Positions 7,333 to 29,381 of a stretch of DNA of 44,276 nt are shown in pieces. The notes beneath the pieces are model-generated. The model saw nothing but the letters and a program-made list of their open reading frames with translations. It was not told the DNA's origin and ran no database searches. The position numbers and the translations under genes were made by a program. The number at the start of each line of letters is the position of its first letter. The first letter of the stretch is position 1. Source of the stretch: Thermogemmatispora onikobensis (GTDB lineage Bacteria > Chloroflexota > Ktedonobacteria > Ktedonobacterales > Ktedonobacteraceae); the NCBI RefSeq assembly GCF_001748285.1, contig NZ_BDGT01000041.1:1-44276 (forward strand), written 5' to 3'.

Positions 7333-7503
7333 TTACTTTTTCTGCTCTTCCCTGGCAGCAGTTGCTTCTGCCTGCTTCTTCACCAGAGGCGGCACATGCT
7401 GCTCGCAGAAGCGGAAGGTCCGCCCACCGGAGAGTAGCTGAGCATAGGCTGCCGGCTCGCCGCAGGTATCGCAGCGGCCCACATGTGTTTTCACTGCTTT
7501 CAT
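7333..7503 (-). CDS. Small zinc-finger protein, 56 residues
   Basis: Read on the minus strand from the ATG at 7503-7501 to the TAA at 7335-7333. The peptide begins MKAVKTHVGRC and carries C11-x2-C14 and C33-x2-H36, spaced like a one-metal zinc ribbon. A charged Lys/Glu/Ala helix follows to the end. AAGGAGG at 7519-7525 is a strong ribosome binding site, though 15 bases from the start is long. Third-position G/C bias and the motif spacing support a real gene. It is too short for usual ORF cut-offs. The function is unknown; treble-clef or ribbon microproteins often bind nucleic acid or act as protein adaptors, which is only a suggestion here. Confidence 0.7.
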   Translation of the reverse strand: MKAVKTHVGRCDTCGEPAAYAQLLSGGRTFRFCEQHVPPLVKKQAEATAAREEQKK

Positions 7504-7892
7504 GATAAAAAAAGAGAACCTCCTTACCGCGGTCTATAGGCAGGTACCGGCACCACTCGCCGCGCACTCTGAGCGTGAGCGAGGAGGGCCAACATGTACC
7601 GATCTTCGAGAGGATTGCCATCCTATATGATACCACACCAGCGCGGCCTCCGCCTCTCCCCTCTCTCAGGGCAGAAAGCTCAGCCAGAATCTTGTCTTAT
7701 GTAAGAGCGCCCCAATCTTCTCTAGCCGGGCCTCTCGGCGAGCAGTTTCCTGGTGAGGAGCAGAGAGCGACAATGCGAGCAGCTTGCGCAACAGCACACA
7801 GTAAAAAGCGGGAGAACGTGCCTGGAGAAGGATCTTCCGGGCAAGCGGGCGGCAAGTGAGAGGAAAGTGAGCATGAAGTGGGAGGGAGTAAA

Positions 7893-8208
7893 CTAAAGAT
7901 AGTGGTGTCGGGTCACCAGTGGTGATCGTCTGGGTGCCAGCGTGCTCGTTGAGCCGGGCGCCTTCAGGCCAGCATGCCCGTGTGTTCCGAACCGGAGGCC
8001 GTTGAGCCGCGCCGCGCCGCGGCGCCCGGGGAGCCCAGGACAGGCTCCGGTGGTGTTCTGCTGCGTGCCACAGCAGAAAGCCCGTCGAGCCTGACCCTGC
8101 GCGAGGCTGCAGCGCAGAGTTCCGGCCCTGGCTCGTTGAGTCGGGCGCAGCCCTGCAGGCCAAGCCGACTGGCTCCGAGCCGTGAGACGATCACCACACC
8201 ACTCTTAG
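7893..8208. ncRNA. Candidate structured RNA closed by a long interrupted helix
   Basis: The ends pair over a long distance. 7921-7931 is perfectly complementary to 8185-8195 (11 bp), and 7901-7908 to 8196-8203 (8 bp), with a 12-base bulge on the left arm only. CTAA/TTAG pairing adds four more pairs outside. The roughly 250-base interior is very G+C rich and has a perfect 8-bp hairpin (8056-8063 with 8071-8078). A degenerate motif CGTTGAGcCGgGC recurs four times, at about 7947, 8000, 8083 and 8134. Open frames across it look unlike protein. It does not match RNase P, tmRNA, SRP or riboswitch cores that I know. The strand is undecided; a TATATA box just outside 8208 favours minus. An inverted-repeat mobile element is the main alternative. 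Confidence 0.45.
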
Positions 8209-8231
8209 CTACCGCCCCTGGTCAGCTGTGC

Positions 8232-8261
8232 TATATATCTGCCTCTTCTGGCCGGGCTGAA
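8232..8261 (-). promoter_or_regulatory. Weak promoter-like site for a minus-strand structured RNA
   Basis: On the minus strand TTCAGC (8256-8261) and TATATA (8232-8237) are 18 bases apart. Transcription would begin near 8225, about 17 bases before the closing helix at 8208. The -35 matches only three of six positions, so support is modest. Confidence 0.3.
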
Positions 8262-8396
8262 CTTGCCCCGCTCCGTGCTGAATCGCTGCGATGCTCAGCC
8301 TTCGCGATGAGTGTCGGCTCACTCCTCTACTGCTTTTGCTTTTTTCCCTGCAGCCCCTGTAGCTCTCTCTCATGCGTTCCCAACCTGGCCCGCTCC

Positions 8397-11300
8397 TCAA
8401 GGGTCAGGGCAGGGGGTAGCATCGGCCTCGATAGCCATCTCTTCTGACGTCGAGGCGGTGGGCGTCGGCGTTGGGGCCAGCGTCGGCTCCTCCCCCGGTT
8501 CGCGCACACTGATCTCCAGGCGGCCATCGACTGCTGTCACATGCACGACGCCTGGCTTAGGAATATTGCCCATCAAAATGCGCAAACTGAGCGGTACGGT
8601 CAGCAAGCGCTCGATGGCCCGACGCAGCGGACGCGCTCCCTGGGTACGGCTAAAGCCCTCTTTACAGAGCAGATCGATGGCGCTCTCATCGGCCTGTAAC
8701 GTCAATCCCTGCTCCAGCAGGCGCGAGGCCAGCTCGTTCATCTGCAGGCGCGTAATCGCCCGCGCATGCTCCTGCGTCAAGGGGTGGAAGATGACCACCT
8801 CGTCGATGCGGCTCAGAAACTCCGGACGGAAGGTCTGGCGCAGGCGCTCCATTAGCTGCTCGCGCTGCATCTCCTCCAGAGAGGTCTTACTGGCGGCGCG
8901 GAAGCCGCTTGGGAGCGAGCGCCCCAGCATATCGGTGCCGACGTTGGAGGTCATAATCCAGATAGCATGCTGGGCGTCGACCGTGTGTCCCTGAGCGTCA
9001 GTCAGGCGTCCGGCGTCGAAGACCTGCAGGAAGAGATCAAAGACCTCGGGATGAGCCTTCTCCAGTTCGTCCAGGAGGACAACGCAGTGCGGACGGCGGC
9101 GCAGCTTGCCAGTGAGCTGCCCCTCCTGATCGTAGCCGATGTAGCCTGGTGGGGCGCCGACCATGCGTGAGACGGCATGCTTCTCCATGTACTCCGACAT
9201 ATCCACACGGATCAGATATTCATCGGAGCCAAAGACCTCGGCAGCCAAAGCCCGCGCCAGCTCGGTCTTACCAACACCCGTCGGTCCCAGGAAGAGGAAA
9301 ACCCCTGCGGGACGATTGCGCGGCTTCAAGCCGGCCCGCGCCACTTGAATCGCCTGGGTCACGCGCCGAATGGCCTCGTCCTGACCGATCACGCGGGCTT
9401 TCAGCCGGCTCTCCAGATTGAGCAGGCGATCGCGCTCCTCGCGGCCCGGCGCATTCACCGGGATACCGGTGCGCGCCGAGATCACTTCGGCCACCGTGGC
9501 CGCCGTGATCACCGGCTCCTCGCCCAGCTCATCGCGGTTGTCCTGCTCGATCGATTCATCCTCCACCCAGAAGACCCGCGCCTGCGAGCAAGCCTCGTCC
9601 AGGACACTGCAGGCCTTGTCGGGCAGGCGCAAGTTGGGCAGATACTGGACCGAGAGATGGACGGCGGCCTGGAGGGCCTCCTCGGTGATGCTGACATGGT
9701 GATGCTGCTCGTAGAGTTCACGCATCCCCCGCAGGACCTGCAGCGCCTCCTCCGGAGACGGCTCTTCGATCATGATTGGACGCAGGCGACGCTCCATCGC
9801 TGCATCCTTCTCGATCATGCGGTACTCTTGCGGGGTGGTGGCCCCAATACAACGCAGACGGCCCCCGGCCAGGGCCGGCTTGAGGATGCCGGCGGCGTCG
9901 ATGCTGCCATCGGCGGCGCGTCCGGTGCCGATCAGCAGATGCATTTCATCAATAAAGAGGATGATGTTGCCGCTGTTCTCCGCCTCCTCCAGCACCTTGA
10001 GCAGCCGCTCCTCAAATTCGCCGCGGTACTTGGTGCCGGCTACCAGTGAGCTGGCGGACAGCTCGATGAGGCGCTTGCCGCGCAGCTCCGGTGGCACCCG
10101 GCCCTCGACGATGCGCTGGGCCAGGCCCCCGACAATGGTCGTCTTCCCCACGCCCGAGTCGCCAATCAGGATCGGGTTGTTGCGATCCTTGAGCATCATG
10201 GTCTGCATCAGCAGGCGCAGCTCTTTCTCGCGTCCAATGAGCGGAGGCAGCTGCTTCAGGCTGGCCTGGCGCGTCAGATCGCGGCCCAGGCGCTCCAGGA
10301 GCGAGTTGCCGGCCCGTGGCGCTGGTTCGGCCAGGCTGAAGCCCGCTGGCATCTCCACCGCCGGCGGCTGATGCGGCTCCGCAGAAGGAGCCAGCTCTAG
10401 CAGGGCATGGGCCTCGCTCGCCATGATCAACTCAATCAGTTGCTCGGGATTGATGCCGATCTGAGTCAGCAGGTTGTGAGTCACGCCATCACCCTCGCTG
10501 AGCACAGCGCGCGCAATGGCGCGTTCGTCGATCATGGTGGCACCGGCACTGATGGCATTGCGCTCGGCAGTCAGCAGGATCTCTTTACAGCGCCGCGTTG
10601 GCAGGATCGGCGTGTCGCTGGTGGCCTTGCCGCTGCCCAGGGCGCTACGAATGACATCGCGCACCTGCTTGGGCGAGAAATTGAGGCTCCGCAGGGCATC
10701 CTGGGTACAGCCTCCATCAAGCTTGGTCAGAGCGATGAAGAGATGGGGCGTCCCCAGATAGTCCTTGCGCATGCGCCGCGCTTCCGCCAGGGCGATGCTG
10801 AGCACCTCCTCGAGGAAGCGCCGGTCAAGGGCGTGTGACGAAGATGGCAGCGAGGGGATCAGTGGCTCTTCCTCCTCTTCAAAGATATCGACGTAGTCGG
10901 CGGGATTGCGCTCGGGCAGACCAAAGCTCAAACGCAACAGCGGGTCACCGTAGAGCTGGAAGGAAATCCAGGCTGCTTGCTCAGGCCGACGCTGGGCCAG
11001 CACGGCACGACTGCGCCTGACCGCCTCGCCAATCGCTACCCCATCACTCAACTCCTGATAGAGGAGCACGGCAAACTCTCGAATGCGCGCGGTCGGCAGA
11101 GGCCAGCGCAGGACGACGACCGCCCCCGCCCCGGCTTCGATCAGGCGCCGGGCCAGGCGCTGCAGTAGCTCCTCACGCTCTGGCTGGCTGGCTGGCCCCA
11201 CTCCCACGCCCGGCGCAGGCAGCCCACTCCCCCCACGCCCTCCCGAGCGCTCGCCTTCGTAGTGACTGATAAAAACCAGGGGACGCCGCGGCAAGAGCTG

Positions 11301-12083
11301 AAAGAGCTGGGCCGCCGCTTCGCCGTCGAGCCGCGAGCTGCCTGCCAGAGCCAGCATCGGCTCGCCCGCTACCAGTAACGGCCCCACACCAGCATAGTGA
11401 ATGACCTGCGGCGGCTCGCTGCTGATACGCATGCGCATGTCAAGCTGGTTGGCTTGCTGACGATAGAGGATCGTGCGCCCGATCGCTTCGGGCAGGGCAG
11501 TGCACAACGCGGCTACCTCCTCTTCCGCCACGCTGCGCTCACCCGTCGGATTGACAAGGAAGAGGATGGAGAGACCCGCCTGGTCGCGCCTCCCCATTTT
11601 GCGCTGCACCCGCTCCGTTAGCGGCGCCAGCCGCTCTGGCCGCGCCTCGCCCACCAGGCGGCTCACGCTCAGCCGCTGACAGAGAAAGGAGCTTGGGCGC
11701 ATGCTCCCATCAAAGCAAAGCTCCCAGGGGATCTCGGGGGTGTTGGTGTCAAGCACGAGGGGGAGATCAAGATGCCGCAGCGCCTCCTGCAACGGCAATG
11801 GCAGCAACTGCTCAAAGAGAAAGCGCCCCAGAGCCTGTACCGAATCGTTGACCGCGCCCAGCTTCATTGTCTGGCGCTTGCTCTCGGCCAGAGCCTGCGT
11901 CTGCATGTATTGAGTCACGGCCTGCAAACTGCGCCTGAGCCGCTCTTTCAGCTCAGGGGTGATCTCCGTGACGTAGTCGCGCCCTTCCTTGCTACCTTCC
12001 CTGGCAGAATACTCAGGCAGGTCAAGCCGGAAACGATAGACGCTTTCAGTGCGTATGATACTCAAGAGCGCCGGCAATTCCAT
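8397..12083 (-). CDS. CHAT-like domain fused to Clp/AAA+ unfoldase
   Basis: This 1228-residue protein has three parts. Residues about 90-390 match the CHAT caspase-like fold: PEIPWELC, a GLSILFLVNPTG strand, HYAGVG, then SHYEGE, and a C-terminal GAGAVVVLRWPLP strand with YGDPLLRL. The positions of the catalytic dyad are changed: Val233 stands where CHAT proteases have His in AGHG, and Tyr275 where they have Cys. Residues about 412-555 are a Clp N-domain. Two AAA+ modules follow, with Walker A at 641-648 (GDSGVGKT) and 933-940 (GPTGVGKT), Walker B in each (LFIDEMH, LLDELEK) and FRPEFLSRIDE in the second. There is no long ClpB-type middle domain. SGF occupies roughly the place of the ClpP-docking tripeptide. 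It is probably an ATP-driven unfoldase whose dead CHAT domain binds clients. The start at 12083 has only a weak purine-rich site. Confidence 0.88.
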   Translation of the reverse strand: MELPALLSIIRTESVYRFRLDLPEYSAREGSKEGRDYVTEITPELKERLRRSLQAVTQYMQTQALAESKRQTMKLGAVNDSVQALGRFLFEQLLPLPLQEALRHLDLPLVLDTNTPEIPWELCFDGSMRPSSFLCQRLSVSRLVGEARPERLAPLTERVQRKMGRRDQAGLSILFLVNPTGERSVAEEEVAALCTALPEAIGRTILYRQQANQLDMRMRISSEPPQVIHYAGVGPLLVAGEPMLALAGSSRLDGEAAAQLFQLLPRRPLVFISHYEGERSGGRGGSGLPAPGVGVGPASQPEREELLQRLARRLIEAGAGAVVVLRWPLPTARIREFAVLLYQELSDGVAIGEAVRRSRAVLAQRRPEQAAWISFQLYGDPLLRLSFGLPERNPADYVDIFEEEEEPLIPSLPSSSHALDRRFLEEVLSIALAEARRMRKDYLGTPHLFIALTKLDGGCTQDALRSLNFSPKQVRDVIRSALGSGKATSDTPILPTRRCKEILLTAERNAISAGATMIDERAIARAVLSEGDGVTHNLLTQIGINPEQLIELIMASEAHALLELAPSAEPHQPPAVEMPAGFSLAEPAPRAGNSLLERLGRDLTRQASLKQLPPLIGREKELRLLMQTMMLKDRNNPILIGDSGVGKTTIVGGLAQRIVEGRVPPELRGKRLIELSASSLVAGTKYRGEFEERLLKVLEEAENSGNIILFIDEMHLLIGTGRAADGSIDAAGILKPALAGGRLRCIGATTPQEYRMIEKDAAMERRLRPIMIEEPSPEEALQVLRGMRELYEQHHHVSITEEALQAAVHLSVQYLPNLRLPDKACSVLDEACSQARVFWVEDESIEQDNRDELGEEPVITAATVAEVISARTGIPVNAPGREERDRLLNLESRLKARVIGQDEAIRRVTQAIQVARAGLKPRNRPAGVFLFLGPTGVGKTELARALAAEVFGSDEYLIRVDMSEYMEKHAVSRMVGAPPGYIGYDQEGQLTGKLRRRPHCVVLLDELEKAHPEVFDLFLQVFDAGRLTDAQGHTVDAQHAIWIMTSNVGTDMLGRSLPSGFRAASKTSLEEMQREQLMERLRQTFRPEFLSRIDEVVIFHPLTQEHARAITRLQMNELASRLLEQGLTLQADESAIDLLCKEGFSRTQGARPLRRAIERLLTVPLSLRILMGNIPKPGVVHVTAVDGRLEISVREPGEEPTLAPTPTPTASTSEEMAIEADATPCPDP

Positions 12084-29156: not shown

Positions 29157-29381
29157 ATGCTTGTTTTGAGACGCAAAGTTGGTGAAAGCATCATTCTCGG
29201 TGGGGTCATTAGCATCTCGGTCCTCGCGGTCGAGGGGGAGCGTGTGAAAATCGGAATCAACGCGCCTCCAGAAGTGACCATTGTGCGCGAGGAGCTGTTA
29301 CGCTCGGGGCAGGATCAGCACCAGCAACCAGCAGCGAATGCTTCGACCGTGACGAATGCTCCAAGCGTACAGCGCTCGTAG
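29157..29381 (+). CDS. csrA: CsrA translational regulator
   Basis: The first 50 residues are the CsrA fold: MLVLRRKVGESIILG, then ISVLAVEGERVKIGINAPPEVTIVREEL. CsrA is a homodimer that binds GGA motifs in mRNA leaders and usually blocks ribosome access. The protein is 74 residues, within the family range, with a polar Gln/Ala/Ser tail after residue 50. AAGGGAG lies six bases before the ATG. The leader can fold over the binding site, which fits self-repression. Its neighbour upstream is the FliA/WhiG-type sigma factor, the arrangement often seen in flagellar loci, although no flagellar genes are in the window. Confidence 0.95.
   Translation: MLVLRRKVGESIILGGVISISVLAVEGERVKIGINAPPEVTIVREELLRSGQDQHQQPAANASTVTNAPSVQRS

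What the first reader, a model, noticed from the sequence alone, without database searches (positions are those of the whole stretch)
7893..8208. Long interrupted helix enclosing a 250-base G+C-rich structured element
Two perfect blocks of 11 and 8 bp, plus a four-pair extension, pair across about 250 bases, with an asymmetric 12-base bulge. Inside are a perfect 8-bp hairpin and four degenerate copies of a CGTTGAG-type motif. A -10 box lies just outside on the minus strand. It sits downstream of the CHAT-Clp gene and matches no RNA class I can recognise, so it may be a new non-coding RNA or a small inverted-repeat element.
Basis: partly seen in the sequence, partly recalled or inferred. Interest (0 to 1): 0.65.

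Follow-up and report, generated by a model that had tools for sequence, protein, structure and literature searches.

The report
New regulatory RNA gene in Ktedonobacteraceae
The folded stretch is a gene for a previously unclassified structured RNA that almost a whole family of spore-forming soil and hot-spring bacteria has kept as a single copy, with its own unusual, activator-type promoter; what the RNA does is not yet known.

Summary
The helix is real and belongs to a stand-alone non-coding RNA gene that reads on the PLUS strand, not from a minus-strand -10 box. It is single copy and present in 6/6 genus genomes (Thermogemmatispora) and 25/29 family genomes; all 19 covariance-model hits among 400 Chloroflexota genomes lie in this family. 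Structure: closing helix P1, an invariant GGGUGCCA, then helix P2 with a UU bulge. P1 and P2 covary strongly (17 of 23 pairs change on both sides; 0/500 shuffles), and swapping arms between species destroys pairing (0/20,000 permutations). The interior carries degenerate ~26-nt repeats (GUYGAG 38 observed, 3.2 expected). The promoter is strikingly conserved: AAG triplets at exact 11-bp steps upstream of a TATACT -10 box, the geometry reported for SARP activators. A terminator-like hairpin follows in 16 of 19 homologues outside the genus. Rfam has no match; CsrB-like, 6S, leader, peptide-coding and mobile-element readings fail or are weak. Best mechanism (inferred): a trans-acting RNA switched on by a SARP-type activator, presenting repeated bulged stems to a protein partner. 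RNA gene ~0.95; SARP control ~0.55; protein sequestration ~0.35. No transcript data were available.

The parts
7854..7878 (+). Three direct AAG triplets (7854-7856, 7865-7867, 7876-7878) at 11-bp steps; proposed binding site of an activator, SARP/OmpR-type geometry
   Evidence: AAG at the two proximal positions in 18 of 18 distinct family promoters; the third position A 18/18, A 17/18, G 14/18
7889..7894 (+). -10 hexamer TAAACT (TATACT in most relatives); no recognisable -35 hexamer
7901..8203 (+). Structured non-coding RNA from inferred start (7901) to the end of the closing helix; the true 3' end lies downstream and is unknown in this genus
   Evidence: Homologues; covariation:
7901..7931 (+). 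P1 5' strand (7901-7906 and 7919-7931, with 12-nt bulge 7907-7918)
   Evidence: P1 covariation in relatives
8185..8203 (+). P1 3' strand
7932..7939 (+). GGGTGCCA, present in every homologue aligned
7945..7954 (+). P2 5' strand CUCG-UU-GAGC (UU bulge 7949-7950)
   Evidence: 8 of 8 pairs with 8172-8179; three pairs changed on both sides relative to the family's UCUG-UU-GAGC/GCUC-CAGA
8172..8179 (+). P2 3' strand GCUC-CGAG
7947..8146 (+). Four degenerate CGTTGAG-type copies at 7947, 8000, 8083, 8134: degenerate repeats of the interior
7333..7503 (-). Divergent neighbour: conserved 56-aa protein, weakly like DUF7455; synteny anchor, not part of the RNA

Best explanation
7901-8203 (plus strand) is the core of a stand-alone, trans-acting non-coding RNA gene of the family Ktedonobacteraceae. 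SHOWN by comparative evidence: conserved promoter; a folded RNA with closing helix P1, an invariant GGGUGCCA, helix P2 with a UU bulge, and an interior of degenerate ~26-nt repeats; in most relatives outside the genus a terminator-like hairpin follows. INFERRED, likely (~0.55): transcription is switched on by an activator that binds the 11-bp-spaced AAG repeats next to the -10 box, as SARP-family activators do. INFERRED, less certain (~0.35): the RNA works by multivalent binding. The repeated CUG-UU-GAG/CUC-CAG bulged stems bind and sequester an RNA-binding protein, so that making the RNA releases that protein's targets (in logic like CsrB/RsmZ, but with another motif and another protein). The GGGUGCCA loop would be a second contact site.
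For: Distribution: 6/6 genus genomes, one place each, 90-95% identical; conserved block ~7880-8202 at 78-100% identity per 40-nt bin, against 0-75% in 8200-8400. The covariance model from 14 non-genus homologues finds 19 non-genus family genomes at E<=1e-20, five of them not in the training set (G011, G014, G015, G018, G023). Structure: 16 of 23 pairs change on both sides, 0/500 shuffles, sliding the partner by 1-3 columns ruins pairing; 17 of 23 with 19 sequences; own arms -25.3 kcal/mol against -16.5 for swapped arms, 0/20,000 permutations; window P2 8/8 pairs with three double changes. Strand: arm duplex stronger on plus in 15 of 18, conserved plus-strand promoter, plus-strand terminator-like hairpins in 16 of 19 non-genus loci. 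Promoter: AAG steps of exactly 11 bp; pattern search gives 21 matches in 29 genomes, 14 at this RNA, 1 for the reversed-pattern control. SARP geometry from passages of PMC10936776. One of the 7 other pattern matches starts 11 nt after the stop of a BTAD-domain (SARP) gene and precedes a Frankia_peptide-like RiPP gene; two others precede orthologous secreted proteins in two genera, one scoring as Phi_1. Repeats: GUYGAG 38 against 3.2 shuffled, YUCCRG 35 against 3.8. Trans action: the sense downstream gene differs or is absent.
Against: No transcript data. In the window itself the minus strand folds better (-180.3 against -165.9), and one genus member (L010) has a P1 change that pairs only on the minus strand. 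No convincing terminator in the genus: 1 of 6. The window's -10 (TAAACT) is weaker than the relatives'. Four of 29 family genomes gave no hit (G006, G016, G017, G027). In one homologue (L059, G025) P2 does not form as aligned, 2 of 8 pairs. R1 scores the genus itself only weakly (E 0.008-0.76) and R2 misses it at 0.001, because its interior is ~100 nt longer; its membership rests on promoter, P1, GGGUGCCA, P2 and synteny. No protein partner is known and interior pairing is not resolved by covariation. SARP binding is geometry only: the repeat borders, hence the '8 bp from -10', are not determined, and OmpR-type response regulators use similar repeats (recalled).
Confidence: 0.6

Rival explanations
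1. Structural or catalytic RNA: it acts through its own fold (an RNA-only assembly as in OLE, GOLLD or ROOL, a ribozyme, or a scaffold), and the repeats are architectural rather than protein sites.
For: Strongly constrained fold, invariant GGGUGCCA, long rod-like predicted fold with repeated bulges. OLE/GOLLD/ROOL form homo-oligomers (PMC12286853, abstract start seen).
Against: At ~200-300 nt it is smaller than those RNAs (recalled); no Rfam match; no conserved sequence core other than GGGUGCCA and the repeats.
Confidence: 0.2
2. Base-pairing small RNA: the invariant GGGUGCCA and the UGUUGAG segments pair with target mRNAs.
For: GGGUGCCA is invariant and lies between P1 and P2 as unpaired or weakly paired sequence.
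Against: Targets were not searched for; UGGCACCC is no typical ribosome-binding site (inference); repeats inside stems fit protein binding better than antisense (inference).
Confidence: 0.18
3. CsrB/RsmZ-type sponge for the CsrA encoded 21 kb away in the same window.
For: CsrA is encoded in 26 of 29 family genomes, at 29157 in this window; same logic of activator-driven promoter, repeats and terminator.
Against: GGA, the CsrA core motif (recalled), is not enriched but low: 42 against 51.2 (dinucleotide) or 59.7 (mononucleotide) shuffled; ANGGANG 3 against 2.7. Genus g13 has no CsrA hit in 3 genomes, yet 2 of them keep the RNA.
Confidence: 0.05
4. cis-acting leader or attenuator of the downstream gene (photolyase-like where it lies in sense).
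For: A photolyase-like gene (name from memory, not from a call) follows in sense in 7 of 25 loci, with a terminator-like hairpin in between.
Against: In 14 of 25 loci, the window included, the next gene is CHAT-Clp on the opposite strand; in 4 neither is there. The RNA keeps structure and promoter regardless.
Confidence: 0.07
5. Minus-strand RNA: 3' UTR of CHAT-Clp or leader of the small protein at 7503-7333.
For: Lower minus-strand energy in the window; same strand as both genes; one minus-only change in L010.
Against: Promoter and terminators face plus; P1 duplex stronger on plus in 15 of 18 and whole fold in 15 of 18; the RNA lies on another contig than the small gene in G015 and G018.
Confidence: 0.04
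6. Small-protein gene or mobile inverted-repeat element rather than RNA.
For: An open GTG frame of 52-55 codons in 6 of 18 homologues.
Against: The same frame stops within 3-6 codons in 5 of 18; repeats of ~26 nt shift frame; single copy at useful scores in every genome searched and largely syntenic.
Confidence: 0.03

Closest known systems
CsrB/RsmZ family sponge RNAs
   Same: Stand-alone RNA, activator-type promoter, repeated short motif in hairpins, terminator (family features recalled)
   Different: No GGA enrichment; present in genomes without a CsrA hit; long-range closing helix
OLE, GOLLD, ROOL (large ornate bacterial RNAs)
   Same: Highly structured, lineage-restricted, function not evident from neighbours
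   Different: About 200-300 nt; no Rfam match
6S RNA (RF00013)
   Same: Roughly 200 nt, long closing helix with an internal loop
   Different: RF00013 rings in 0 of 29 family genomes and does not match the element
SARP-activated promoters (AfsR/afsS of Streptomyces)
   Same: 11-bp direct repeats over the -35 position next to the -10 box; in the reported afs box the repeats span -40..-30 and -29..-19, whose centres (-35, -24) are the centres of two AAG triplets here if the start is 7 nt after the -10 hexamer
   Different: Sequence is AAG-based, not CGTT(T/C)ATCG; three or more repeats; drives an RNA gene; activator unidentified

Membership tests
Conserved structured non-coding RNA gene | Compensatory base changes in the proposed helices | tested here: met
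Conserved structured non-coding RNA gene | Conserved promoter and terminator | tested here: met
   Promoter 18 of 18 distinct promoters; terminator-like hairpin 16 of 19 outside the genus, but only 1 of 6 inside it
Conserved structured non-coding RNA gene | Transcript detected | not testable with these tools
   No reads available
Any Rfam 15 family | Score above gathering cut-off | tested here: not met
CsrB/RsmZ sponge | Repeated GGA motifs | tested here: not met
   42 observed, 51.2 expected
CsrB/RsmZ sponge | CsrA encoded in every genome with the RNA | tested here: not met
   G026 and G028 have the RNA, no CsrA hit (drafts, 84-87% complete)
6S RNA | Match to RF00013 | tested here: not met
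SARP-activated promoter | Direct repeats with 11-bp period reaching over the -35 position | tested here: met
   geometry from PMC10936776
SARP-activated promoter | 3' repeat 8 bp from the -10 element | tested here: inconclusive
   AAG ends 10 bp before the hexamer; repeat borders unknown
SARP-activated promoter | SARP (BTAD) proteins encoded | tested here: met
   29 of 29 genomes; not specific, the control also rings in 6 of 14 named genomes
SARP-activated promoter | Binding and activation by a SARP | not testable with these tools
   Needs EMSA or deletion
Mobile inverted-repeat element | Several copies per genome | tested here: not met

The most novel reading that the evidence does not exclude
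A new RNA class in which a SARP-type activator, known for switching on antibiotic clusters, drives a multivalent sponge RNA whose bulged-stem repeats titrate an unknown RNA-binding protein. The same promoter type also stands before secreted-protein and RiPP genes, so the RNA would be the post-transcriptional arm of a developmental or secondary-metabolism regulon in Ktedonobacteraceae.
Probability: 0.25. Interest if true: 0.85.

Novelty: new variant of a known kind. Interest (0 to 1): 0.7.

Why it matters
It is an RNA family absent from Rfam 15 by these searches, kept in nearly all sampled members of a large-genome, mycelial, spore-forming lineage of Chloroflexota in which my paper searches found no described regulatory RNA. 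The promoter gives a handle on its activator, and the covariance model lets others find and test it. If the activator is a SARP, it would be an RNA target for a regulator family known for protein-coding antibiotic clusters.

Tried and rejected
BLASTN outside the genus found nothing (6 of 29 genomes, all in the genus); the homologues came from synteny with the small protein plus a profile, and only then from covariance models. I first favoured the minus strand because of its folding z-score; promoter, terminators and family-wide energies reversed that. Rfam at loose thresholds gave only chance matches. Non-family hits were rejected: G046 (E 0.04 with R1, 0.015 with R2; partial), L092 and L097 (pattern hits in a Phycisphaerales bin and bacterium F082 that the model does not support). 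G017:C136, a promoter-pattern match, has no RNA downstream. Viral contigs: no pattern match. Peptide reading: frame not conserved. CsrA sponge: motif test negative. Papers: searches with Ktedonobacter + noncoding RNA, + sRNA + transcriptome, + riboswitch, Thermogemmatispora + RNA-seq, and RNA motif/covariation listed no paper on this RNA by title or abstract start; only listings were read for these. PMC10936776 and PMC10972967 were read as found passages. The library holds no bioRxiv-only work and few subscription papers. RNase P, tmRNA and SRP models were not run genome-wide; the element itself was scanned against all of Rfam.

Rows dropped before counts: of 21 non-genus loci with the small protein, 14 went into A5; 7 (L024, L026-L028, L038-L040) showed no motif next to the gene, and 5 of those genomes later gave the RNA elsewhere. 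In one search the 7 near-duplicate promoters (5 genus, L023, L032) were left out of the column counts, 18 of 25 kept; 18 representatives were likewise used, and 17 (genus left out) for the spacing count. The ~26-nt spacing count (47 of 83 distances within 2 of a multiple of 26) is inflated by common descent. An earlier count gave 15 pattern matches at the RNA and the small protein beside it in 21 of 25 loci; the recount here (14 of 21; 20 of 25) replaces it.

Full report
WHAT IS THERE. The window lies in a Thermogemmatispora-type genome: contigs of the sister genomes have the same lengths as named Thermogemmatispora records found by pattern, and the window is contig 41 of G000. It is the only perfect inverted repeat of this size and span in the window, 0.2 expected in block-shuffled copies. 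The inner hairpin and four CGTTGAG-type copies are present.

CONSERVATION. BLASTN finds one copy per genome in 6 of 6 genus genomes and none in the other 23 family genomes. In the genus the block from about 7880 to 8202 is more conserved than its non-coding surroundings, with a sharp edge at 8203, exactly where the outer helix ends. A conserved 56-aa protein gene upstream (7503-7333, minus; found in 27 of 29 family genomes) gave the syntenic place in other genera, and a profile of the element matched there in the same orientation. Those matches revealed GTATACT and GGGTGCCA on the window's plus strand.

AN RNA FAMILY. Fourteen non-genus homologues were aligned (A5) and a two-helix model was built (R1). 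It finds 19 non-genus genomes of the family at E<=1e-20, five of which had not been used for training and do not lie directly next to the small gene. With the genus this makes 25 of 29 family genomes. G006, G016, G017 and G027 gave nothing convincing, also with laxer filters. A second model (R2) found 19 of 400 Chloroflexota genomes, all in this family; the genus members are below threshold there because their interior is about 100 nt longer. Named carriers include Ktedonobacter, Dictyobacter, Ktedonospora and Ktedonosporobacter.

STRUCTURE. P1 closes the RNA, an invariant GGGUGCCA follows, then P2 (UCUG-UU-GAGC with GCUC-CAGA) encloses a variable interior. On A5, 16 of 23 pairs show changes on both sides, 86.6% of cells pair, and no shuffle of 500 reaches any of the five measures; sliding by 1-3 columns drops pairing to 38-57%. 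On 19 sequences, 17 of 23 (aligned with the model, so leaning to it). An alignment-free control: 5' arms pair with their own 3' arms at -25.3 kcal/mol on average and with other species' arms at -16.5; 0 of 20,000 permutations reach the observed mean. The window, never used in training, has P2 as CUCG-UU-GAGC/GCUC-CGAG, 8 of 8 pairs, three of them double changes against the family form; one homologue, L059, does not form P2 as aligned, 2 of 8.

STRAND. Plus: the arm duplex is stronger on plus in 15 of 18 and the whole fold in 15 of 18; the conserved promoter and most terminator-like hairpins face plus. Against: in the window the minus strand is predicted more stable, and L010 has one P1 change tolerated only on minus.

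PROMOTER. Aligned on the -10 box, 18 distinct promoters share AAG at -24..-22 and -13..-11 without exception, and nearly so at -35..-33 (A 18, A 17, G 14), counted from the first base of the hexamer: an exact 11-bp period, with a partial fourth copy. In the window these are 7854, 7865 and 7876, with TAAACT at 7889-7894. Searching this pattern alone in 29 genomes gave 21 matches, 14 of them this RNA; the reversed-pattern control gave 1. [quoted passage not shown] The AAG triplets sit at the centres of those positions if transcription starts 7 nt after the hexamer, which is an assumption. BTAD proteins are encoded in 29 of 29 genomes. One other pattern match (G020, L082) begins 11 nt after the stop of a BTAD gene and precedes a Frankia_peptide-like RiPP (the RiPP match is below Pfam's cut-off). 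Two others precede secreted proteins that are 55% identical between two genera, one scoring as Phi_1. SARP control is therefore a well-motivated inference, not a result; OmpR-type response regulators remain possible.

INTERIOR AND MECHANISM. GUYGAG occurs 38 times in 18 RNAs against 3.2 in shuffles, and its partner YUCCRG 35 against 3.8. Within single RNAs they recur at about 26 nt, most clearly in L025 with five units. Each unit can form CUG-UU-GAG/CUC-CAG, the same bulged stem as P2 (inference from sequence). Repeated identical motifs in a stand-alone RNA with an activator-type promoter suggest multivalent protein binding; this is inference. CsrA is the obvious candidate because it is encoded in this window (29157) and in 26 of 29 genomes, but GGA is depleted rather than enriched and the RNA is kept where no CsrA was found. 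The partner is therefore unknown. A leader role is unlikely, since the downstream neighbour is convergent CHAT-Clp in 14, a sense photolyase-like gene in 7 and neither in 4 of 25 loci ('photolyase' is a recalled name, no family scan was run on it).

VERDICT. A real, previously unclassified RNA gene (no Rfam match; no paper on it in the listings). I file it as a new variant of a known kind: a new family among stand-alone structured bacterial RNAs, with an unusual promoter and repeat architecture. What it binds, when it is made and what it does remain open and are directly testable.

Noticed in passing
window 29157-29381 (+): CsrA gene; CsrA also lies within roughly 13-40 kb of the RNA in many relatives, so the larger neighbourhood is syntenic. 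CsrA hits are missing in all three genomes of genus g13.
   Followed up: partly
window 8397-12083 (-): Single gene fusing a CHAT (caspase-like) domain to a ClpB/ClpA-type double AAA+ chaperone, convergent to the RNA and conserved in much of the family.
   Followed up: no
L082 1-1842 (G020): SARP (BTAD) gene followed within 11 nt by the AAG-repeat promoter and a Frankia_peptide-like RiPP precursor: a likely small SARP-RiPP unit.
   Followed up: partly
L073, L089, L071, L091: The same AAG-repeat/TATACT promoter stands before genes of proteins with signal-peptide-like starts (orthologous, one Phi_1-like, in two genera; others without Pfam match): a probable regulon beyond the RNA.
   Followed up: partly
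window 7333-7503 (-): 56-aa cysteine-containing protein, 96-100% identical within the genus and found in 27 of 29 family genomes, only weakly like DUF7455.
   Followed up: no
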